In this document: one piece after another, positions 3,071-13,839 of the stretch
Numbering within the stretch: position 1 is the stretch's first letter
Layout of the letters: each line of letters begins with the position of its first letter
NCBI GenBank assembly: GCA_937875645.1
Contig: CALLXO010000107.1
Coordinates: 1 to 13,839, forward strand
Length of the DNA stretch: 13,839 nt
DNA from: an uncultured Clostridia bacterium
GTDB taxonomy: Bacteria; Bacillota; Clostridia; Christensenellales; CAG-314
Direction of reading: 5' to 3'
Position numbers and translations under genes: made by a program
The notes under the pieces: generated by a model
The model's database searches: none
Told to the model about the DNA's origin: nothing
The model's input: the letters and a program-made list of their open reading frames with translations, nothing else

Positions 3071-3088
3071 TTGTTTCACGTGAAACAA
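3071..3088. other. parS: parS centromere site 1 (ParB binding)
   Basis: TTGTTTCACGTGAAACAA is a perfect 18-base palindrome containing the bacterial parS consensus TGTTNCACGTGAAACA at 3072-3087. ParB/Spo0J loads at such sites near the origin to partition chromosomes and recruit SMC. About 2.7 kb from the putative origin is a typical location. The site sits in the non-coding gap between the CvpA-family terminator and the MATE promoter. parB itself is not in the window. Confidence 0.92.
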
Positions 3089-4634: not shown

Positions 4635-4671
4635 TAATGGATTGTTCCACGTGAAACAATCCATTAGTTTT
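4635..4671 (+). terminator. Long palindrome, probable terminator of the MATE gene, with parS at its centre
   Basis: Positions 4635-4646 and 4655-4666 are perfect 12-base inverted arms (TAATGGATTGTT and its complement), followed by TTTT (4668-4671). It begins 12 bases after the MATE stop codon, so it can serve as an intrinsic terminator. The T-tract is short on the plus strand. On the minus strand the run opposite 4621-4634 is also T-rich, so it might work both ways. The inner part is a parS site. Confidence 0.6.
4643..4658. other. parS: parS centromere site 2 (ParB binding)
   Basis: TGTTCCACGTGAAACA matches the parS consensus TGTTNCACGTGAAACA at every fixed position. The only asymmetry is the C at 4647. 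Unlike site 1, its palindrome continues outward to 32 bases (4635-4666) as a terminator-like hairpin. It lies about 1.57 kb from site 1, which is consistent with a small origin-proximal parS cluster. Confidence 0.9.
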
Positions 4672-4743: not shown

Positions 4744-4772
4744 TTGACAAACAGACAAATGACGAATATAAT
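4744..4772 (+). promoter_or_regulatory. Consensus sigma-A promoter driving the riboswitch and giant gene
   Basis: TTGACA (4744-4749), a 17-base spacer and TATAAT (4767-4772) match the housekeeping consensus completely. Transcription would begin near 4779, about 14 bases before the riboswitch aptamer. Such a strong promoter suggests that control is exerted after initiation, by the riboswitch. Confidence 0.85.
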
Positions 4773-4792
4773 AACAACAAATAAATGTTAAA

Positions 4793-4855
4793 GGTAAAAC
4801 TATCGCAAGATAGTGACACAAAACTACAGGGTCAAGAAATTGACAGCCAGTTGCC
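4793..4855 (+). ncRNA. GEMM-I (c-di-GMP-I) riboswitch aptamer
   Basis: Three helices form a GEMM-I fold. The closing helix is GGTAA (4793-4797) with TTGCC (4851-4855). The second helix is ACTATC (4799-4804), GNRA loop GCAA, GATAGT (4809-4814). The third hairpin is GTCAA (4831-4835), GAAA loop, TTGAC (4840-4844). The linking GTGACACAAAACTACAGGG and final AGCCAGTTGCC closely resemble clostridial members (usual core GACGCAAAGC). A gapless comparison with the V. cholerae Vc2 RNA, as I recall its numbering, keeps G20 (4793, favouring c-di-GMP over cGAMP) and A47 (4820). It puts A in place of G45 and G50 (4818, 4823). The class assignment is strong; ligand affinity is uncertain because of these changes. 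The controlled gene is the giant surface protein at 4956. Confidence 0.87.
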
Positions 4856-4884
4856 ATTGTACGTATTGTTCAATGGTATTTTTT
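4852..4884 (+). terminator. Riboswitch expression-platform terminator
   Basis: TGCCATTG (4852-4859) pairs with CAATGGTA (4871-4878) over eight pairs, including one G-U. Two more pairs form inside around a GTATT loop, and six T bases follow at 4879-4884. The 5' arm reuses TGCC from the aptamer closing helix (4851-4855). The aptamer's closing helix and this terminator therefore compete, which predicts that ligand binding permits read-through (ON switch). Confidence 0.75.
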
Positions 4885-4955
4885 GTTTAATAGCATTAGA
4901 AATCGCTAATCAGGGGCGGGACAGGTAAAAGAAAAGCGCTATTTACGGTAAGGAA

Positions 4956-7900
4956 ATGAGAAGTCATTTTTGTAAAGTATGGATAAGTATAATAATTCTA
5001 CTGCTTGCCCTCTGTCTTGTTGTGGGCGGTGTATTTGCTTATTACCAATTTATGGTAAAAGGCTGGCGGCATACAATAAGCAGCGCTTCCGTTGCCTTCA
5101 CTTTTAACGGAAAAACCTTTATTGATTCTATTGATGGTAGGATAAACAGCAGCGAGCTTAATATAAGTAAAGGTGAAGAAAAAGATTTGCGCCTGGTGGT
5201 AAGGGTAAGGAGCAGCACCGAATCGGCAATGGGATATACTATCAACTTTGGTTTTGGCACTAAGGAAGAAGACGGGTTGCAAGTAAAGGACGACAAGTTG
5301 GCGCGCGCAATAGAAGTGTATCTGTTTAAAGAGGGTGGATATTCGTATTTATGTAATATGGATAAAATAAGCAGTATAATGCTTGATGGCGACCTTGTAG
5401 CCAATCAAAGTTACGCCTATGATTTAAGACTTGTTTATAGTCAAGGCGCGGGGGATTATTACCGAGATAAGACCTTCACACTTAAAGCTACAGCACATAC
5501 AAAAGAAGCTTCGCTAAATTTAAAATATAATTATGTAAAAAATGAGTCAGAACTTAAAACTGCTTTGACGACAGATCGCCATAATAATAAAAATATTGTA
5601 TTGACGCGAGACATCAATATTATCAATAGCATAAACGCAACAAACAGAGTGCGGATTAATTTAAACGGATACAAGTTGTTGGTGGGAGAAGGCGCAAGCG
5701 ATACTCCCTCCATCAGTTTTTTATATGCTAACGCTTTTGACAATCAGCTTACCGCTGGCATTGTAGATGACAGTGCAATTAGCAACAGTTTAGATACAAC
5801 TCACAACAAAATAAATGTAGACATAAACATTAATACTCCCAATGATATTTTTATTATTGGCGAAAGTTTAGCGGATAGTTTTGAAAAATTTACCTGCACT
5901 TCGTATTTGTTGGAAAGCGCAAAACAGCTAATTCAAAACCGTATATATCAAGCGGAAAAGCTTGTTTTTAACGACGGGGAGGACTTAAAACTTTTTAAAG
6001 GATTAGGTTGGTATATAGAAAACAATTTATTAGAAGTGACTACCGACGGCATAATTTTTAATGAACAAGATTTAAACGCAAACGGCGTTCTCTTTTCGTC
6101 TCTTTTGCGGCTTAATGCGAATTTGGTATTTACCGCAAACTATCAGGCAGAATTTACTTTAAGCGATAACAATACAATGGTTAACGTGGGCGGTATAATT
6201 AAGGTTAGAGGCAACAGCCCGCAGGCGGTTGCGGAAGCATTTGTTTCTTGTGTGCCTGATACGATTATGTGCAGTTTGTTTTTCCCTTGTTTTGATGAGC
6301 TTACAAACAGTTTTGTTTCTTGGATTATTAGCGACAATAATGCAAATTATCTTGACGAAAACGGTACTATTCTGCCAAAGGGAGTATATGTTTTAGATAG
6401 TTGGAGCGCTAAAACAATAACGGTAGGGGTAAAGGTGGCTTGCGGTGACATTCAATATACTGCCTATAAAACAGTTACAGTAACTGTCCTAAACGGAGAG
6501 GAGCGCACACAAAAGCTATATAAGTATCAGCAAATAATTTTGCAACCAGATGAGACAACTGACTTGATGAAATTAATTTATGCCGACAATGTGGAGCGAG
6601 CTGCGTTAAAAGGCATTTCTGTTTCCTTAAATGCCGAGGACAACATTTACAGCGGAAACATTAACTACTTGGAAGTTTCGCCCCCCGTAACCAACGAACA
6701 AGGGGTAGCGTATGAATATGTCACTGTTAAAAATAGTCCTACAGAAGGAGCAGTAAAAATAAGAGCTTCCCTTACCTTTGATTACGGGCAAGAGGGGCTT
6801 TATATTCTTAACAATTTAGAAATTATTGTGCTTGCAAAATCCAGCACTTATGAGATAAGCGACAGTGCAAACGCTATTCAAAAGCAGTACGAAACAAACA
6901 CATATACCTTAGACGAGGGTTTTTCCTTTGTTGTTTCGGGAAATATAACCAACAATGTATTTGTAGAATACTTTCTCCCAGAAATTTTCAGAGATTATGT
7001 TTTAATGCGTCAAAATGTTTTTCTTTTGGCAAACGCCGAAGATTTAATCGCCGATTATGCCCATTTCGGCTTTTATGCGCTTTTAGAAGGTGACTATTGT
7101 TATTTTTCCGCCGCTACTCGCTTTGATCAATTTGGCAACGCAAGCACAACAGGTGAGTATGTAAAAATACTGACAGCGGAGAGCGAAGAAACGCTCTGTA
7201 ACCTTGTTGAATTACTTAACAGCGGGCTTGTGTTTCGCCGAGTAACAGAGATAAAGATAAATGCCGAAAAACTGAGTATAAATACCGTTACTGCCAACAT
7301 TTACGCTAATCTTTATACCATTAGTGAGGGAAATAAGGAATATGTTACTGAAACAATAACGGAAGAGGGCGAAAGCATAACTCGCAACGTGACCTTTAAT
7401 TTTTCTCTCGTATTAACGGGGATTATTCATAACAACGCCAATGAAATTGCCGACTACAACTTATATGCCTCTTTGCTTAATTTTTATGACGCTAACGGTG
7501 ACGGATACATAACAAAAGTTGAAGCAACCGCCGATTGGAACTCTCTCTCAAAAAGTACAATTATTTATTTTGAAAGGGAGTATACCTGTTTAGATTTTAG
7601 CTATTGCGATATTTCCAGCTTAAAGGGGTTGGAATATTTTACATATATTAAGGGACTTAAGTTTAGCAACAATAAGCTGATAGATATTTTTCCAATAGAA
7701 AATTTGCGGCAATTAATATATTTAGATTTATCTGACAACTTTTTAACCAATATAACAAGCTTGAGTTTTTCTGACAGTTTGCGTGTATTAATTTTGCAAA
7801 ACAACAACATCACAAACATAGAGCCGTTAAGATATTTAAGCGACCTTGTCGCTGTTGACTTATACCAAAACAACATAGGTGATTTTGACCCAATAAGCGG

Positions 7901-10900
7901 CTTAGACAGTCTTATTTTCCTTGACGTAAGATACAGCGGTAGGACGACTATTACAGCTGACGTAAAATATTATTTTACTCTTCTTTACGTAAACAATAAA
8001 AACAATAGTATAATTGATACTTATTTTTCCATGAAAACAGATTTTGTGGGGGGAGGAGATTTTTCCGCTACTCAAACAGAGCAAGCGGCGGCATTGGCTT
8101 TAAGTAACGTTTACGAAATAAACGAGCTGTATACCAGTCTTTTTACTCCTTCGGTCATTAATTATGACGGCAAACTGTTTTATCTGTTGTGGGGCATAAG
8201 AAACAATGACAGGATAATTTTTGATGACTACAACGGACTGTATACAACTGGTTGCACTATTGTTAGCGGAATTGTGGAAGAAGCATTGACGCTTACCTTG
8301 ACGGTAACGGACAGCACGGATTTATCTCAAATATCTTTGCAACGCACTTTTGATGTTATTCTTTTGCCCTCACAGTTAAGCGAGGCAACGGCCTATCTTC
8401 AGCTGCCTTTAAGTGTTGCTAATAGTCAAGGACTAAGTGCGGTATTTACCGACAGCAACTATGCCTATGTAAAAGCCAAAGAGGCTATCCCCGACAGAGC
8501 GTTACGAGGTACGCTTTTTAACTATTTTAATACAACGATTGACTCAGACAGCTCACCTATTATTATCTATTCGCAAGGAGGGGTGTCGTTAAGAGAAAAA
8601 TATGTGCTGACGGACACAACAAATTTAAATGCGGTATATGATTTTTCGTACAGAAACATAAGCGATTTAAGCGGACTGAATTTTTTTACCATCGTTTTTA
8701 GCGGAACACAAAGTTTTAAGCCTGCCATTGACTTAAGAGGAAATCAGCTTGACGGGTTAAGCGAACTAAACAAAATGAATGGTGTGACTAAACTTTATTT
8801 AGGCGGACAAGAGTATGACTTTACGCAACTTTTAGGTACTGCGGTAAAAAACGGCGACACTATTGTTGATTGGTCGGGGGGACTAACGACACTTAGTTTA
8901 CTGTCTGTTTACGAGTGTTACAACTTAGACAGCGAAGAAGTGCAAAAAGCATTATATATGACGTACATCGCAAACACCGCCGTTGACATTTACTTAACGG
9001 ACGCTGCTTCAGTTTGGAATCCTTACGAAAAATTGTATAAACACGCCCAAAGTTGGCCATCGATATACAGCGTTATGGAAATAGGCGATTACAGCTATTT
9101 TGAAAATGATTTTGTTTCGGTAAACTTTTACGATTATCGAGATATAAATTTTTATGTAACAGATTTAAAAATTGATAAAGCATATTGGAACGCCAACACT
9201 TCGGCAATAAATTACTTTGAAAACGGCGATATAGCTGGCAATATATTAGGCGTAAATTATTATACAAATTTTATTTACCGTTATCTTGTTGGCTATGATT
9301 GCGCTGCTTTTTTGACGATTACGGTACAAGGGAATGACGGAAGAGGCGCATTGACTGATGCATTTAGTTTTATAACGCAAATATCCGCACAACTGCATAA
9401 TAAGCTTTATATTTGCGATTTGCCCTCAAATAATGCTTACGTTATCAAATACGGAAAAGATTTAGATTATTTTGACGGACAAACAACAAAAGTAGGTATT
9501 TTACCTAATTGCGTGGCAATAAGCGACGTATTTACCGGCCGCTCTGTTAGCGCACTTATTTTATATCAGATGTCACGTAATACCAGCGGAGGGTTAAGAT
9601 ATTTTAAAGTCAGCAATAGCAGACGGGTAGACAATTATGCCGACTTTGCAAATGGCACTTTAACTAGCTCTTGGTATGCTTACTTTGATTCGACAACAGG
9701 CAACACTTATATAAGCAGAAAAATGCCTCTTGCTGTTACCAGTACTGTTAATGTGGACGGCAGTTATTTTGATAGGGGAGACGCTTTAAGTGGGCTTGAT
9801 TTAACGGGATGTCTTACCGTCAACATTCAAAGGGATTGCAAATTAGGTGACGGCAGTTATTTAGTTAACGTAAGAAATTTAACGGTATATTATTCCTTTG
9901 TTGATTTGTCTAAAATAAATGTTGACTTAGTAAACCTTATCTCTTTGGATATAGGGAGCACCAGAAACAACAGAGGCGTGACGCTTTACCATACTGACGA
10001 AGGCGGAAATACCGTATATGCTTTTTCACATATGCCCAACTTAAACACATTGAGGTTAATCACCAGCAATTGTTATGACTGGGAAGGGTTAAAGGGGTTT
10101 TTATACGACAGTGACGGCAATTTAAACACTTCAACGCAGTTGTCCTCTATGAGCATTTACGAAAATAGCAACGCAAACAGCAATGCAAACGTAACCGACC
10201 TCGCTACTTTGGCTATGGTAAATGAAATATATAACCTTTATGTCACCTCTCACATGGGAGAAATGCCTCTTTATTATGTAAGAGACAGCGTAACGGTATA
10301 TTCGCCCGAGGGCACAGGCGCATCCTTTGTTTACGGAGTGAGCGAGCCGGGGGAGTATATTGATTTTTCCTCAAGAATTTTTGATTTATCAGCAAAAGTA
10401 AATGATGAAAATATAATAGAAACAAATATTCAAATTTTGTCAACGGGGGACATTATCACGTTGCCTCTTTCTACTTACAATACTCTGTACGGTGTACTCT
10501 ACGCTCCAAACGCTGTGGACAGCAAAGGCGAAAATATAGATAGCGTGCGCGCTTTTGCTATTACTTGGATATTGGTGGGATTAGACTCCACTACCTTTAA
10601 CAATATGTTTACGCATCCTTTTGTCACAGCAACTAACACTACTTACAATGGGACAAAATCTGTAATGCTTGTATATGATGTTTTGGCAGAGGATTTCAAT
10701 TTTGAGAGTGCAATTACCTTGACTTATTCTTCTTTAAGTACTTTTGACTATTATTTTGTCGCAGTAGGTCATATTGGCGAAGGATATTTTGATAAAGACA
10801 GCAATTATATTTTATACAGCGACAGTCTACATAATTACTATAATTTTGTCTATCCCTTTTTAGCAGTGGGTGCAACACCGGCGGCGGCAGGTACTTCTTC

Positions 10901-13839
10901 CTATGCGGAGTTTAAAGACGTTAATTTGCGCTTTTTTGTGTTTAGTGTTTTTGGTAAATATACTAACGAAAGCGGTTATAGCGGATGTTTGGATATTAAT
11001 ACAAAAAATACCTTAAAGGCTCAAACTTCCTTTGTTTTAACGGACACGCCTTCTTTGCTCTGTTACTCCAGTCAAATTTCGGTAGTAAATTGTTATAATA
11101 GCTTCAACAGCCACAGCTACAGCCTTATTAACTGTCCGCAATGGGTAATTACGCTAAAAGGGGTGGAATTATTTGAAAATATCACATCAATCACGGTGAC
11201 GGATAATTTAATTTCAGACATAACGCATTTGTCTGACTTAACGCAATTGACGCAAATAAACTTAAGCGGAAACATAATTAGCGATATTTCTGCGCTGTCC
11301 TCTTTACCGATAAGTATATTAAATTTATCATACAATCCGATAAACAGCTTATCAGCGGTAAGCGGCACACTTAAAAGCAGCATTGATACTCTCATCTTAA
11401 CGTACTGCACGCAAATAGGCGGAGCTCAACTTTCTTATTTAGTAGGGGCAAACAACTTAAACACGTTACGTTTATTCGGTACGGCGTGCGCCTATGATTT
11501 TTATGAAGAAAGCGGACAAAAAAGAGACGCCATTTATTGGCTTAACCAAATAAACAGGACAATAAACCTAACCTTAAACACCAATACTTTAAATGTTGTT
11601 ACGCCGTTGCAAATAAACACCTTTTATAATTATTACGCTTTCTTGACAGCAATAGACCACTCTGTCTATAGTGACAATACAGCATATGTTATTACTGAGA
11701 CAGTAGAAGGCATCACTTATACAAAAACCTTTAATGACAGGGTATTTTTCTATAAGGACACATTAGGGAAAAACAGCACCGCACTAATAAAGATAACAAG
11801 CGACGCCAATCCTCAGTTTGTTGCTTATAGAGAGATAGGCTTTAACAACCCCAACAGTACTGCAAATTATACTGTGGTAAGCAACGGGCAAAGTTACTTG
11901 TTAAATCTGTTTAATAGTAGGTTATTTGCATTTATTTTAGATAATCAAGAAATTCGTACCGTGGACAGCGTAAATCAAATTATTAGCGTAAAGGACAACA
12001 TAACAATAAATGTGACTTCCGATATAGGCTTTTACAGTTTAGAAGGAATGCAATATCTGCAAGTTAGCAACCTTTATGTCACCGACAATAATTTAATTAA
12101 GACTTGGACACAATTTTCCGCTACAAATTTCACCAACTCGGTGACCAACTTGACGATAGAAAGCGGCTTTTTAAAGGCGGTTGATTTAGCGTTTTTAAGC
12201 TATACCACCAAAATTAATTCATTGGATATTAGTAGATGCAAGGGGATTAATTATTATGACGCTGTTTTTCTTGCAAATATAATAAAGCAAAACACAACTA
12301 TCAGGACATTAAGCGTAAATGATGCAAAAGGCATATTCAATTTTATTAGCAGTAACTCTTTTGTCAGCGCAAGAGATTATGTAATAGCGTTGTTTAATGC
12401 TAAAAATATTGCCTATTGCAGTAACGTGGGAGTAATGACAAACATAACGGCATTGGCTTTTAATGCACAAAACGGCGAACGCTATTATTATTCGGATATA
12501 AGCAATACCTTAAGCTACTATGCATTAATTAGTAGCAACGCAAATAAATATGTAGCTTTAATTAATCCTACAACGACTAATAACGGCACAAGGTACGCAA
12601 CAAACGTTACAGCCTCTGCCCTTGCCGCCGCAAACGGCAGGAGGGTAGTACCTATAATTATCAGTTGGACAGAAATTAACACTACTGAGGGCATAAAAAT
12701 ATATTTGCCAAAAAACATGACGGAAATAGGCGAAAGCTATTATATAGAATGGCGCATTACCTCTACTTCTACAACGGCATTATTGACATTTATCGATGGC
12801 GTTGTTTTGCTTAACCGCAGCAATTTAAATGCGTACAGCGCATTAAGTTCTGTTAGACTTAGGGCGTATTTTTATAAAATTGAGGGGGGAGTGCCTGTCT
12901 CTTCCACTTCAACTGCTTATAACTTTTACATAACGATAACTTTTATTAATAAAACGGAACGAGTTTTGACAAATACAAATTATTATCTTCAATTATTGGA
13001 AGAAAATGCAGAGTACGGTCAAGCGGACTATTTTGACGGAACGTATTATTACTATCAAGCAGCAAATATCTTTAAGAGCGGTAATTTATTAGATTATATG
13101 TATAAAGACAATAAACTGTCTACAAGTACTACTGTAGGCAAAGCTATAGGTAATATACGCAATATTTATAACAATGATATACCCTCTCTTAAAGACAATT
13201 GGGCGGTTAACTTATACGCTTATAAGGTAGGAGAGGATAGGGTTTTTACGACAGAAAGCGAAGTAGAAGGTTATGAAGTAATGCTTTATGGCAATGTTAT
13301 CCCTTATAGTTTTATTGACTCATTGCAATATTTTTATCTGCCAAATTTGGATGTTACAAGTATTAGCGGAATGGAAATTTTTAGCAATTTGATAGCGGTA
13401 CAGTTTGAATATTCTCAGCTTGTAGATATTTCGCCGTTAAGCAAATTGACAAAATTAGAATATTTTTATTACTATGTAGACGGCTCCAGCTCAAACAGAA
13501 TGCAGGAGGTGTTGGACTTTTCGCCGCTAATTAAGGGTGCTGGCGATACACTAAAGGAATTTGCCTATTGCTACAATTCCGGTATACCGTTAAATGATTT
13601 ATCCTTTTTGACCGCTTTTAAAAATTTGCAAAGAGCGTATATTTACCTCAACGATAATAGCGCATCAGCAGGTATTCGTTCGCAAATATTTAATACCTTG
13701 TCTTTTAAGTATGTTTTGGCGTATTTTTCGCTGTATCAGCCAGACACAAAAGTTTATGTAGGGTTAATAAGCATTGCCAACACTATAACGATGGTCGATA
13801 AAACGTTAAGTTATGTTGCGGAATCTCTCACTAATACAA
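4956..13839 (+). CDS. Giant modular LRR surface protein (putative adhesin), N-terminal 2961 residues, cut by window edge
   Basis: I translated the frame from ATG 4956 to the right edge and found no stop. An in-frame TAA at 4926 leaves 4956 as the only upstream ATG. AAGGA (4950-4954) is only one base away, oddly close. Residues 8-28 are a hydrophobic signal segment ending VVGGVFAYYQF, like SipW-dependent TasA/camelysin signals. Residues about 45-184 resemble a TasA-like beta-sandwich (LARAIEVYLF, YRDKTFTLKATAHT). Residues about 190-245 have a beta-helix-type opening (IVLTRDINI then LNGYKL). After that, Ig-like strands (about 482-528, 1104-1137, 1449-1478, 2595-2665) alternate with LRR islands (about 879-995, 1228-1281, 1639-1718, 2065-2178, 2359-2458, 2789-2911). 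D845-E856 is an EF-hand loop. The protein is rich in Y, N, S and T, and no enzyme motif was seen. I infer an exported adhesin or matrix protein; the C-terminal anchor is outside the window. Confidence 0.85.
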   Translation, partial: MRSHFCKVWISIIILLLALCLVVGGVFAYYQFMVKGWRHTISSASVAFTFNGKTFIDSIDGRINSSELNISKGEEKDLRLVVRVRSSTESAMGYTINFGFGTKEEDGLQVKDDKLARAIEVYLFKEGGYSYLCNMDKISSIMLDGDLVANQSYAYDLRLVYSQGAGDYYRDKTFTLKATAHTKEASLNLKYNYVKNESELKTALTTDRHNNKNIVLTRDINIINSINATNRVRINLNGYKLLVGEGASDTPSISFLYANAFDNQLTAGIVDDSAISNSLDTTHNKINVDININTPNDIFIIGESLADSFEKFTCTSYLLESAKQLIQNRIYQAEKLVFNDGEDLKLFKGLGWYIENNLLEVTTDGIIFNEQDLNANGVLFSSLLRLNANLVFTANYQAEFTLSDNNTMVNVGGIIKVRGNSPQAVAEAFVSCVPDTIMCSLFFPCFDELTNSFVSWIISDNNANYLDENGTILPKGVYVLDSWSAKTITVGVKVACGDIQYTAYKTVTVTVLNGEERTQKLYKYQQIILQPDETTDLMKLIYADNVERAALKGISVSLNAEDNIYSGNINYLEVSPPVTNEQGVAYEYVTVKNSPTEGAVKIRASLTFDYGQEGLYILNNLEIIVLAKSSTYEISDSANAIQKQYETNTYTLDEGFSFVVSGNITNNVFVEYFLPEIFRDYVLMRQNVFLLANAEDLIADYAHFGFYALLEGDYCYFSAATRFDQFGNASTTGEYVKILTAESEETLCNLVELLNSGLVFRRVTEIKINAEKLSINTVTANIYANLYTISEGNKEYVTETITEEGESITRNVTFNFSLVLTGIIHNNANEIADYNLYASLLNFYDANGDGYITKVEATADWNSLSKSTIIYFEREYTCLDFSYCDISSLKGLEYFTYIKGLKFSNNKLIDIFPIENLRQLIYLDLSDNFLTNITSLSFSDSLRVLILQNNNITNIEPLRYLSDLVAVDLYQNNIGDFDPISGLDSLIFLDVRYSGRTTITADVKYYFTLLYVNNKNNSIIDTYFSMKTDFVGGGDFSATQTEQAAALALSNVYEINELYTSLFTPSVINYDGKLFYLLWGIRNNDRIIFDDYNGLYTTGCTIVSGIVEEALTLTLTVTDSTDLSQISLQRTFDVILLPSQLSEATAYLQLPLSVANSQGLSAVFTDSNYAYVKAKEAIPDRALRGTLFNYFNTTIDSDSSPIIIYSQGGVSLREKYVLTDTTNLNAVYDFSYRNISDLSGLNFFTIVFSGTQSFKPAIDLRGNQLDGLSELNKMNGVTKLYLGGQEYDFTQLLGTAVKNGDTIVDWSGGLTTLSLLSVYECYNLDSEEVQKALYMTYIANTAVDIYLTDAASVWNPYEKLYKHAQSWPSIYSVMEIGDYSYFENDFVSVNFYDYRDINFYVTDLKIDKAYWNANTSAINYFENGDIAGNILGVNYYTNFIYRYLVGYDCAAFLTITVQGNDGRGALTDAFSFITQISAQLHNKLYICDLPSNNAYVIKYGKDLDYFDGQTTKVGILPNCVAISDVFTGRSVSALILYQMSRNTSGGLRYFKVSNSRRVDNYADFANGTLTSSWYAYFDSTTGNTYISRKMPLAVTSTVNVDGSYFDRGDALSGLDLTGCLTVNIQRDCKLGDGSYLVNVRNLTVYYSFVDLSKINVDLVNLISLDIGSTRNNRGVTLYHTDEGGNTVYAFSHMPNLNTLRLITSNCYDWEGLKGFLYDSDGNLNTSTQLSSMSIYENSNANSNANVTDLATLAMVNEIYNLYVTSHMGEMPLYYVRDSVTVYSPEGTGASFVYGVSEPGEYIDFSSRIFDLSAKVNDENIIETNIQILSTGDIITLPLSTYNTLYGVLYAPNAVDSKGENIDSVRAFAITWILVGLDSTTFNNMFTHPFVTATNTTYNGTKSVMLVYDVLAEDFNFESAITLTYSSLSTFDYYFVAVGHIGEGYFDKDSNYILYSDSLHNYYNFVYPFLAVGATPAAAGTSSYAEFKDVNLRFFVFSVFGKYTNESGYSGCLDINTKNTLKAQTSFVLTDTPSLLCYSSQISVVNCYNSFNSHSYSLINCPQWVITLKGVELFENITSITVTDNLISDITHLSDLTQLTQINLSGNIISDISALSSLPISILNLSYNPINSLSAVSGTLKSSIDTLILTYCTQIGGAQLSYLVGANNLNTLRLFGTACAYDFYEESGQKRDAIYWLNQINRTINLTLNTNTLNVVTPLQINTFYNYYAFLTAIDHSVYSDNTAYVITETVEGITYTKTFNDRVFFYKDTLGKNSTALIKITSDANPQFVAYREIGFNNPNSTANYTVVSNGQSYLLNLFNSRLFAFILDNQEIRTVDSVNQIISVKDNITINVTSDIGFYSLEGMQYLQVSNLYVTDNNLIKTWTQFSATNFTNSVTNLTIESGFLKAVDLAFLSYTTKINSLDISRCKGINYYDAVFLANIIKQNTTIRTLSVNDAKGIFNFISSNSFVSARDYVIALFNAKNIAYCSNVGVMTNITALAFNAQNGERYYYSDISNTLSYYALISSNANKYVALINPTTTNNGTRYATNVTASALAAANGRRVVPIIISWTEINTTEGIKIYLPKNMTEIGESYYIEWRITSTSTTALLTFIDGVVLLNRSNLNAYSALSSVRLRAYFYKIEGGVPVSSTSTAYNFYITITFINKTERVLTNTNYYLQLLEENAEYGQADYFDGTYYYYQAANIFKSGNLLDYMYKDNKLSTSTTVGKAIGNIRNIYNNDIPSLKDNWAVNLYAYKVGEDRVFTTESEVEGYEVMLYGNVIPYSFIDSLQYFYLPNLDVTSISGMEIFSNLIAVQFEYSQLVDISPLSKLTKLEYFYYYVDGSSSNRMQEVLDFSPLIKGAGDTLKEFAYCYNSGIPLNDLSFLTAFKNLQRAYIYLNDNSASAGIRSQIFNTLSFKYVLAYFSLYQPDTKVYVGLISIANTITMVDKTLSYVAESLTNT
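7488..7523 (+). other. EF-hand / dockerin-like calcium loop in the giant protein
   Basis: Residues 845-856 read DANGDGYITKVE, with D1, N3, D5, G6, I8 and E12 in the canonical calcium-loop spacing. The preceding ADYNLYASLLNFY and following LRR match the common bacterial arrangement in which a helix plus calcium loop caps an internalin-like LRR (compare family pattern IPDANLRAALL..DTNGDGEIS). A second, degenerate cap (IPDRALRGTLFNYFNTTIDS) precedes the next LRR island at about residue 1178. Confidence 0.7.
7590..7938 (+). repeat. LRR island 1 (internalin-like leucine-rich repeats)
   Basis: Residues 879-995 contain about five repeats of 21-23 residues with the LxxLxxLxLxxNxIxxIxPL pattern. Examples are LIYLDLSDNFLTNITSL, LRVLILQNNNITNIEPL and LVAVDLYQNNIGDFDPI. 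This is the clearest LRR run in the protein and suggests a protein- or ligand-binding curved surface. Confidence 0.85.
11148..11490 (+). repeat. LRR island 4
   Basis: Residues about 2065-2178 repeat the LRR pattern: ITSITVTDNLISDITHL, LTQINLSGNIISDISAL, ISILNLSYNPINSLSAV, then IDTLILTYCTQI and LNTLRLFGT. The island is followed by a helical stretch ending INRTINLTLN, which has counterparts after islands 2 and 5. Confidence 0.8.
13320..13690 (+). repeat. LRR island 6
   Basis: Residues about 2789-2911 contain degenerate repeats: LQYFYLPNLDVTSISGM, LIAVQFEYSQLVDISPL, LEYFYYYVDG, LKEFAYCYNSGIPLNDL and LQRAYIYLND. Tyr and Phe often replace Leu, so profile searches may underscore it. The array probably continues beyond the right edge. 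Confidence 0.7.

What the first reader, a model, noticed from the sequence alone, without database searches (positions are those of the whole stretch)
4779..4955. Predicted c-di-GMP ON-switch in front of a giant surface protein
Seen: a consensus promoter, a GEMM-I aptamer (4793-4855) and an intrinsic terminator (4852-4884) whose 5' arm reuses the aptamer's closing-helix strand, then an open frame of at least 2961 codons with a signal segment. Known: c-di-GMP promotes sessile growth, and c-di-GMP riboswitches control adhesins and pili in Clostridioides difficile. Inferred: high c-di-GMP stabilises the closing helix, blocks the terminator and turns on a very large adhesin or matrix protein. The pairing with a TasA-headed LRR giant may be undescribed.
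Basis: partly seen in the sequence, partly recalled or inferred. Interest (0 to 1): 0.85.

Follow-up and report, generated by a model that had tools for sequence, protein, structure and literature searches.

The report
c-di-GMP riboswitch before giant surface protein
A short RNA switch that very probably senses the bacterial signal c-di-GMP sits in front of a gene for a giant exported protein, and related switches sit in front of other exported-protein genes in related uncultured bacteria, which suggests that the signal directly turns on a protein cell coat.

Summary
Confirmed: consensus promoter (4744-4772), c-di-GMP-I aptamer (4783-4858; RF01051, 63.8 bits, E 8e-11), terminator (4852-4884), then a 2961-codon open frame; a near-identical 3176-aa protein exists. 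The terminator's 5' arm contains the aptamer cytosine that pairs with the ligand, so bound aptamer and terminator exclude each other: a predicted ON switch, as published for pilM. The same-genus relative keeps promoter, aptamer (72/76 bases), terminator and giant.

New here: a probable regulon. The genome's other place (tandem riboswitches) heads an operon with a SipW-type exported protein. In own plus 120 related genomes, 16 of 49 c-di-GMP-I places precede SipW-type genes (by eye), 15 of 16 with this terminator logic; two more genera have other giants there. Starting from the operon's head protein, 8 of 14 loci have the riboswitch upstream (5 of 11 not already seen). In 18 genomes with that protein, RF01051 and GGDEF are both present (9) or both absent (9).

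Not shown: ligand binding, switching, adhesion, a 'TasA head' (no profile hit; model pLDDT 43). No paper seen links c-di-GMP riboswitches to SipW/TasA genes (open-licence library). New member of a known kind with an apparently undescribed target system.

The parts
4635..4666 (.). Inverted repeat (14 pairs) between the MATE gene and the riboswitch; scores as terminator on both strands and holds a parS-like site (4643-4658); may isolate the riboswitch unit from upstream transcription (inferred)
   Evidence: both strands; pattern; arms change together in G001 (sequence, by eye)
4744..4772 (+). sigma-70-type promoter TTGACA-17-TATAAT, start of transcription expected near 4779
   Evidence: 12 of 12; same hexamers and spacer length in G001 (by eye)
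4783..4858 (+). c-di-GMP-I (GEMM-I) aptamer; GNRA tetraloop GCAA 4805-4808; equivalents of G20, A47 and C92 (Vc2 numbering, recalled) at 4794, 4821 and 4854
   Evidence: 63.8 bits, E 8e-11, with alignment; 72 of 76 identical in G001
4852..4884 (+). intrinsic terminator: stem 4852-4878, T run 4879-4884; its 5' arm (4852-4859) contains the ligand-pairing C (4854)
4956..13838 (+). giant exported protein, 2961 codons to the window's end; near-identical full-length protein P0001 is 3176 aa; LRR motifs
4977..5045 (+). hydrophobic N-terminal signal segment ending ...VVGGVFAYY, SipW-type in appearance
   Evidence: translation; my signature rule; no profile hit
7776..7931 (+). best leucine-rich-repeat stretch (residues 941-992)
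   Evidence: LRR_4 E 2.4e-17 with best stretch 941-981, LRR_8 E 1.9e-6 with 941-992

Best explanation
A transcriptional c-di-GMP class I ON riboswitch. RNA polymerase starts near 4779. At low c-di-GMP the 3' strand of the aptamer (4852-4859, holding the ligand-pairing cytosine 4854) pairs with 4871-4878 to make an intrinsic terminator, and transcription stops near 4884. At high c-di-GMP the ligand holds that cytosine in the folded aptamer during transcription, the terminator cannot form, and the giant exported LRR protein is made. The genome has three c-di-GMP-I aptamers at two places; the other place precedes an operon of a membrane-anchored head protein with a TasA-like predicted fold and a SipW-type exported protein, so c-di-GMP probably turns on a coordinated cell-surface programme. 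Shown by computation: aptamer identity, strand overlap, conservation in one same-genus genome, recurrence in front of SipW-type genes, presence of a diguanylate cyclase gene. Inferred: ligand, direction of switching, adhesive or matrix role.
For: RF01051 63.8 bits; contact positions kept (alignment). Terminator 5' arm uses the ligand-pairing C. In 15 SipW-associated examples the other stem letters change while pairing is mostly kept (the 15 were chosen for having that C paired, so the C-G pair itself is by construction). Published parallel: in the pilM GEMM riboswitch the terminator captures the ligand-pairing C75 and the switch is ON (PMC9262584, passages). Same-genus orthologue keeps promoter, aptamer, terminator and giant (73% identity over 765 aligned residues) while the leader after the terminator diverges. 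Regulon: own genome, relatives, protein-led test 8 of 14, or 5 of 11 without records already seen. Supply: one 1808-aa receiver-PAS-GGDEF-EAL-PAS-GGDEF protein with one intact GGDEF motif. Co-occurrence: riboswitch genomes with GGDEF 23 of 23, others 24 of 98; of 18 genomes with the head protein, 9 have both and 9 neither.
Against: No ligand or expression data. For the window alone the shuffle control on the terminator is weak (27 of 300). The aptamer's second hairpin is short and lacks the usual tetraloop-receptor letters (alignment), so affinity could be altered. The aptamer scores 57.1 bits with the variant family c-di-GMP-I-GGC, just under its cut-off of 59. The genomes are related, so co-occurrence counts are not independent, and the wide RF01051 search used stricter filters that lose weak matches. 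The genome is an 82%-complete assembly. 33 of 49 c-di-GMP-I places in own and related genomes precede other kinds of genes. The protein-led query was built from four proteins that all stand behind riboswitches, so it leans towards such relatives.
Confidence: 0.8

Rival explanations
1. The aptamer senses another cyclic dinucleotide, such as 3',3'-cGAMP, or is a c-di-GMP-I-GGC-type variant with altered ligand preference; the ON logic is the same.
For: RF03167 scores 57.1 bits, close to its cut-off of 59, and one family member passes it. The shortened second hairpin departs from the RF01051 consensus. cGAMP riboswitches were first annotated as c-di-GMP ones (PMC9262584, passage).
Against: The G20 equivalent is G (4794); the G20A form of the class I aptamer is the one studied with cGAMP (PMC6274999, passages). 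RF01051 scores higher than RF03167 (63.8 against 57.1). GGDEF genes are present in all 23 riboswitch genomes, though some GGDEF enzymes make cGAMP (recalled; not tested).
Confidence: 0.12
2. An OFF switch, or a switch acting on translation, with the terminator-like hairpin playing another part.
For: Functional class I switches of C. difficile are OFF switches (PMC6366702, passage). A leader of about 70 nt separates terminator and start codon.
Against: No separate antiterminator is needed: the terminator arm is the aptamer's own ligand-contact strand, found in 15 of 16 SipW-associated places and in 6 of 8 protein-led loci including Bacilli. The leader after the terminator is poorly conserved (42 of 77 aligned columns).
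Confidence: 0.06
3. A decayed riboswitch that no longer responds, left in front of a constitutively attenuated gene.
For: Shortened second hairpin; non-functional c-di-GMP riboswitches exist in C. difficile (PMC6366702, passage).
Against: 72 of 76 aptamer bases are kept in the same-genus relative, three of the four changes being in loops and one turning A-U into G-U (placement by eye), against 42 of 77 aligned columns in the leader downstream; 63.8 bits.
Confidence: 0.05
4. The switch is real but the giant protein is not an adhesin or matrix protein (for example a receptor, a scaffold for enzymes or an S-layer-like protein).
For: Only LRR motifs are recognised; no known adhesin domain in the Pfam scan and no sortase motif at the end of P0001 by eye; the N-terminus has no profile match.
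Against: The other place of the regulon heads SipW-type exported proteins, in G001 with a signal peptidase of that type, and a head protein whose model resembles TasA; two other genera have other giants under such a switch.
Confidence: 0.35

Closest known systems
Bacillus thuringiensis Bc2 class I riboswitch in front of the collagen adhesion protein gene cap
   Same: Class I aptamer, ON by transcription read-through, target is a surface adhesin (PMC6366702, passage)
   Different: Here the target is a giant LRR protein with a SipW-type signal, and SipW-type genes recur behind such switches in relatives
Geobacter metallireducens pilM GEMM riboswitch (cGAMP)
   Same: ON switch in which the terminator captures the ligand-pairing cytosine; aptamer and terminator mutually exclusive (PMC9262584, passages)
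   Different: Ligand cGAMP, target pili; here the G20 equivalent is G, so c-di-GMP is expected
Clostridioides difficile class II switches (Cdi-2-4 of pilA1; those of two sortase-dependent surface proteins)
   Same: c-di-GMP turns on pili and surface adhesins (PMC6366702, PMC11477304, passages)
   Different: Class II aptamer; class I aptamers are OFF switches in that species; sortase-dependent targets
TasA/SipW of Bacillus subtilis and BsaA/SipW of Clostridium perfringens
   Same: SipW-type export of matrix proteins (B. subtilis: PMC5864091, passages; C. perfringens: PMC7395162, start of abstract in the search listings, rest recalled). The head protein's model resembles the TasA fibre 8aur
   Different: The B. 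subtilis operon is described there as repressed by the protein SinR; in PMC7395162 the only place naming riboswitch or c-di-GMP is the reference list. Similarity of our proteins to these is below profile detection
c-di-GMP-I-GGC riboswitch (RF03167)
   Same: Same clan; family members score near or, in one case, above its cut-off
   Different: The window scores higher with RF01051 and is below the RF03167 cut-off

Membership tests
c-di-GMP-I riboswitch (RF01051) | Covariance-model score above the curated cut-off | tested here: met
   63.8 bits against 35, E 8e-11, full model 1-87
c-di-GMP-I riboswitch (RF01051) | Ligand-contact positions G20, A47, C92 (Vc2 numbering recalled) | tested here: met
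   G4794, A4821, C4854, placed by me on the cmscan alignment
c-di-GMP-I riboswitch (RF01051) | GNRA tetraloop docking into a tetraloop receptor (recalled) | tested here: inconclusive
   GNRA loop present (GCAA; GUGA in G001) but the receptor stretch of the second hairpin is shortened or missing
c-di-GMP-I riboswitch (RF01051) | Binds c-di-GMP | not testable with these tools
   Needs in-line probing or ITC
c-di-GMP-I-GGC riboswitch (RF03167) | Score above the curated cut-off | tested here: not met
   57.1 bits against 59
Transcriptional ON riboswitch with terminator overlapping the aptamer | Terminator arm contains an aptamer strand needed for ligand binding, followed by a U run | tested here: met
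   also in G001
Transcriptional ON riboswitch with terminator overlapping the aptamer | Ligand lowers termination | not testable with these tools
   Needs a transcription assay
TasA/camelysin family (giant's N-terminus) | Profile match to TasA/camelysin models | tested here: not met
   No such hit in Pfam or NCBIfam
TasA/camelysin family (giant's N-terminus) | TasA fold | tested here: inconclusive
   Model of the piece alone has pLDDT 43.3; weak profile-profile match to the head family, probability 30%
TasA-like fold (231-aa head protein of the companion operon) | Structural match to TasA | tested here: inconclusive
SipW-dependent export | SipW-type signal peptidase encoded with the exported proteins | tested here: inconclusive
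   G001 operon protein: TIGR02228 59.6 bits over its cut-off 51.85, but the SipW model NF046067 85.3 under its cut-off 190. In G000 the contig ends before this gene; a TIGR02228 protein stands on another contig, 96.5 bits

The most novel reading that the evidence does not exclude
Across uncultured Clostridia and some Bacilli, ON-type c-di-GMP-I riboswitches are a standard control of a SipW-exported, TasA-like fibre operon and of giant, fast-diverging surface proteins with LRR motifs, so that c-di-GMP commands the protein coat directly through RNA, without PilZ effectors.
Probability: 0.45. Interest if true: 0.72.

Novelty: new member of a known kind. Interest (0 to 1): 0.54.

Why it matters
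In Bacillus subtilis the tapA-sipW-tasA matrix operon is described as under the protein regulator SinR (PMC5864091, passages). If c-di-GMP acts on TasA-like operons and giant LRR proteins through ON riboswitches in many uncultured Firmicutes, that would be a direct RNA route from the sessility signal to the protein coat, a marker for finding coat genes in metagenome assemblies, and a source of class I ON switches from Clostridia, where the C. difficile examples are OFF switches.

Tried and rejected
TasA head of the giant: searched Pfam, NCBIfam, PDB sequences and a single-sequence AlphaFold model of residues 28-205; nothing convincing. The PDB-sequence search with the head-family alignment found nothing either.

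Homologues of the giant: only itself in the protein database (region 1-800: one hit; the 790-aa piece: none; in both only the roughly 8000 candidates sharing most words were scored) and only G000 and G001 among 61 genomes. The giants of G004 and G008 behind such a switch are therefore not detected homologues. All four have LRR hits (E 4.9e-5 to 8.2e-8), but only one of the four (L044:10962-14318) reaches the curated LRR cut-offs; aBig_2 reaches its cut-off in three of the four. So 'giant LRR protein' is firm for the window's genus and for G008, weak for G004.

SipW-type counts: my automatic rule flags 22 of 49 places in the first three ORFs and 4 of 141 background ORFs. I dropped 6 of the 22 by eye as ordinary signal peptides or unrelated (G064:C36, G092:C1b, G100:C95, G112:C12, G060:C41, G060:C1), leaving 16 of 49; the background was not pruned in the same way. 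The 49 come from 56 hits: one at a contig end was not fetched (G060:C43), three upstream tandem copies were merged, three had no ORF in reach. In the window's own family 10 of 12 merged places are SipW-type; G001:C26 and G002:C22 are not. In G083:C26 the SipW-type gene is the third ORF.

Terminator rule: 31 of 55 riboswitches have a hairpin using the ligand-pairing C, some weak (above -5 kcal/mol). Of the 16 SipW-type places 15 pass; G051:C12 fails the rule although a hairpin with the same strand is visible by eye. In the shuffle control over these 16, between 16 and 215 of 300 shuffles give some such hairpin, and between 0 and 30 of 300 one as stable. One search used 15 places: 14 of the 16 (without G074:C1 and G051:C12) plus G091:C74, which has no downstream ORF in reach.

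Protein-led test: 6 of 14 loci have no riboswitch (L089, L090, L092, L093, L094, L099); L089 begins near a contig end and L099 has no ORF of 80 aa or more at the match. In own and related genomes the head family is in 18 of 121 (G091 only by a weak partial match); in 7 of the 9 that also have riboswitches one lies upstream of the head or its operon, in G091 and G100 it does not.

Literature: nine searches, seven of them aimed at c-di-GMP riboswitch or GEMM together with TasA, SipW, camelysin or leucine-rich repeat. No listed title or abstract start joins them. Of the papers holding both kinds of term I looked at passages in five (PMC7395162, PMC8470499, PMC5864091, PMC8348372, PMC7911051); none joins them. 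The others I saw only as listings. The library holds open-licence PMC papers only, so absence is weak evidence.

Full report
WHAT IS THERE. The window holds a partial dnaN on the minus strand (by eye), dnaA, a Colicin_V/CvpA-type gene, a MATE exporter and the giant frame. Between exporter and giant lie, in order, an inverted repeat that scores as a terminator on both strands (4635-4666), a 12-of-12 promoter (4744-4772), the aptamer (4783-4858), the terminator (4852-4884) and the start codon at 4956.

IS IT MORE THAN CHANCE. The aptamer is secure as a family match: 63.8 bits against a curated cut-off of 35, the only Rfam match in 13.8 kb at that threshold. The terminator by itself is moderately supported: z -3.1 and 4 of 200 shuffles when folded alone, but 27 of 300 shuffles in a looser test, and the pattern scan does not list it. 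The comparison settles it: the same-genus genome G001 has the same arrangement next to the same neighbours, with identical promoter hexamers and spacer length, 72 of 76 aptamer bases identical, a terminator whose 3' arm differs but still pairs (a G-U pair in the window is G-C in G001), and an orthologous giant at 73% identity over 765 aligned residues.

HOW IT WORKS. On the cmscan alignment the equivalents of the Vc2 contact residues G20, A47 and C92 (numbering recalled) are G4794, A4821 and C4854. C4854, which in the bound state pairs with one guanine of the ligand (recalled), lies inside the terminator's 5' arm. Without ligand the minimum-energy fold of 4779-4886 contains the terminator. The aptamer cannot be bound and the terminator formed at the same time, so ligand should favour read-through. 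This is the published logic of the pilM GEMM ON riboswitch, where the terminator captures the ligand-pairing C75 (PMC9262584, passages). These are inferences from anatomy; no ligand was tested.

THE REGULON. The genome has three c-di-GMP-I aptamers at two places. The other place is a tandem in front of a 231-aa membrane-anchored protein and a second protein with a signal ending in AYAWF, where the contig ends. In G001 the operon continues with a signal peptidase (TIGR02228 over its cut-off, the SipW model under its cut-off), a protein with weak ATPase matches and a DUF2357 protein. In G004 and G008, the best assembled riboswitch-bearing members of the family seen here, one riboswitch precedes this operon and one precedes giants of 1656 + 1109 aa and 1902 + 1119 aa with SipW-like signals. 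All four giants have LRR hits, but only one reaches the LRR cut-offs and three reach that of aBig_2; they show no detected homology to the window's giant. So a class I riboswitch before giant exported proteins recurs in three genera, with LRR motifs firm in two and weak in the third.

TEST FROM THE RNA SIDE. Of 121 genomes (own plus 120 relatives) 23 have RF01051, 56 hits in all. I examined 55. Merging three tandem copies and leaving out three without an ORF, 16 of 49 places precede SipW-type genes within the first three ORFs, by eye; the automatic rule gives 22 of 49 against 4 of 141 background ORFs. Of the 16, 15 have the ligand-pairing C inside a terminator; over all 55 the number is 31.

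TEST FROM THE PROTEIN SIDE. A scan of the species-representative genome collection with the alignment of four 231-aa-type proteins gave 14 loci. Eight of the 14 carry c-di-GMP-I (7) or c-di-GMP-I-GGC (1) on the same strand upstream, 33-298 nt before the gene. Three of the eight are records already met from the RNA side; of the other 11 loci, 5 have it, four of these five being from Erysipelotrichaceae or other Bacilli at 23-28% identity. Six of the eight have the C-containing terminator by the rule. The scan did not use the RNA, but its query proteins all stand behind riboswitches, so it is not wholly independent.

THE SIGNAL. The window's genome encodes one protein with GGDEF domains, 1808 aa, receiver-PAS-GGDEF-EAL-PAS-GGDEF, in which the second GGDEF motif is intact and the first is not (motifs by eye). 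Every riboswitch genome has GGDEF genes (23 of 23) against 24 of 98 without riboswitch. Of the 18 genomes with the 231-aa family, nine have GGDEF and all nine have RF01051; nine lack GGDEF and all nine lack RF01051. Relatedness inflates such counts, and several genomes are incomplete. PilZ was found in 0 of 11 family genomes, so RNA may be the main c-di-GMP effector here, though other effector types were not searched.

COMPARISON WITH THE KNOWN. A class I riboswitch that turns on an adhesin is known (Bc2-cap), and the ON mechanism is known (pilM). In C. difficile class I switches are OFF and the ON switches of adhesins and pili are class II (PMC6366702, PMC11477304, passages). A link of c-di-GMP riboswitches to SipW/TasA-type operons or giant LRR proteins did not appear in the seven searches aimed at it, nor in the passages of five papers looked at (see tried and rejected). 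I therefore file the element as a new member of a known kind, with an apparently undescribed target system that recurs in Clostridia and Bacilli.

Noticed in passing
window 3072-3087 and 4643-4658: Two parS-like sites (TGTTYCACGTGRAACA, no mismatch; consensus recalled), both with counterparts in G001:C269; the second sits inside the inverted repeat that also scores as a two-way terminator, and its flanking arms change together between the two genomes.
   Followed up: partly
L006 1980-2160 (minus strand): Two c-di-GMP-I aptamers almost end to end with one terminator; both contain the letters AGTTGCCA, so the terminator's 3' arm could pair with either aptamer's strand, a possible two-input gate (by eye).
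   Followed up: no
L007 7105-12531 (minus strand): 1808-aa protein with two GGDEF domains (first degenerate by eye), an EAL domain, receiver and PAS domains: likely maker and breaker of c-di-GMP in one chain, the only GGDEF-bearing frame found in the assembly.
   Followed up: partly
L037 269-3553 (minus strand): A membrane protein with sub-threshold ATPase matches and a DUF2357 protein follow the SipW-type operon; look-alike pairs stand in G004, G008 and L094 by eye; role unknown.
   Followed up: no
L088 2616-2693: A c-di-GMP-I-GGC (RF03167) hit above its cut-off in front of the same operon type in G008, with the window at 57.1 bits just under that cut-off: the two Rfam families may grade into each other here.
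   Followed up: partly
L074 (G111:C152): A c-di-GMP-I riboswitch about 235 nt before three consecutive genes that look MreB/actin-like by eye, an unusual target.
   Followed up: no
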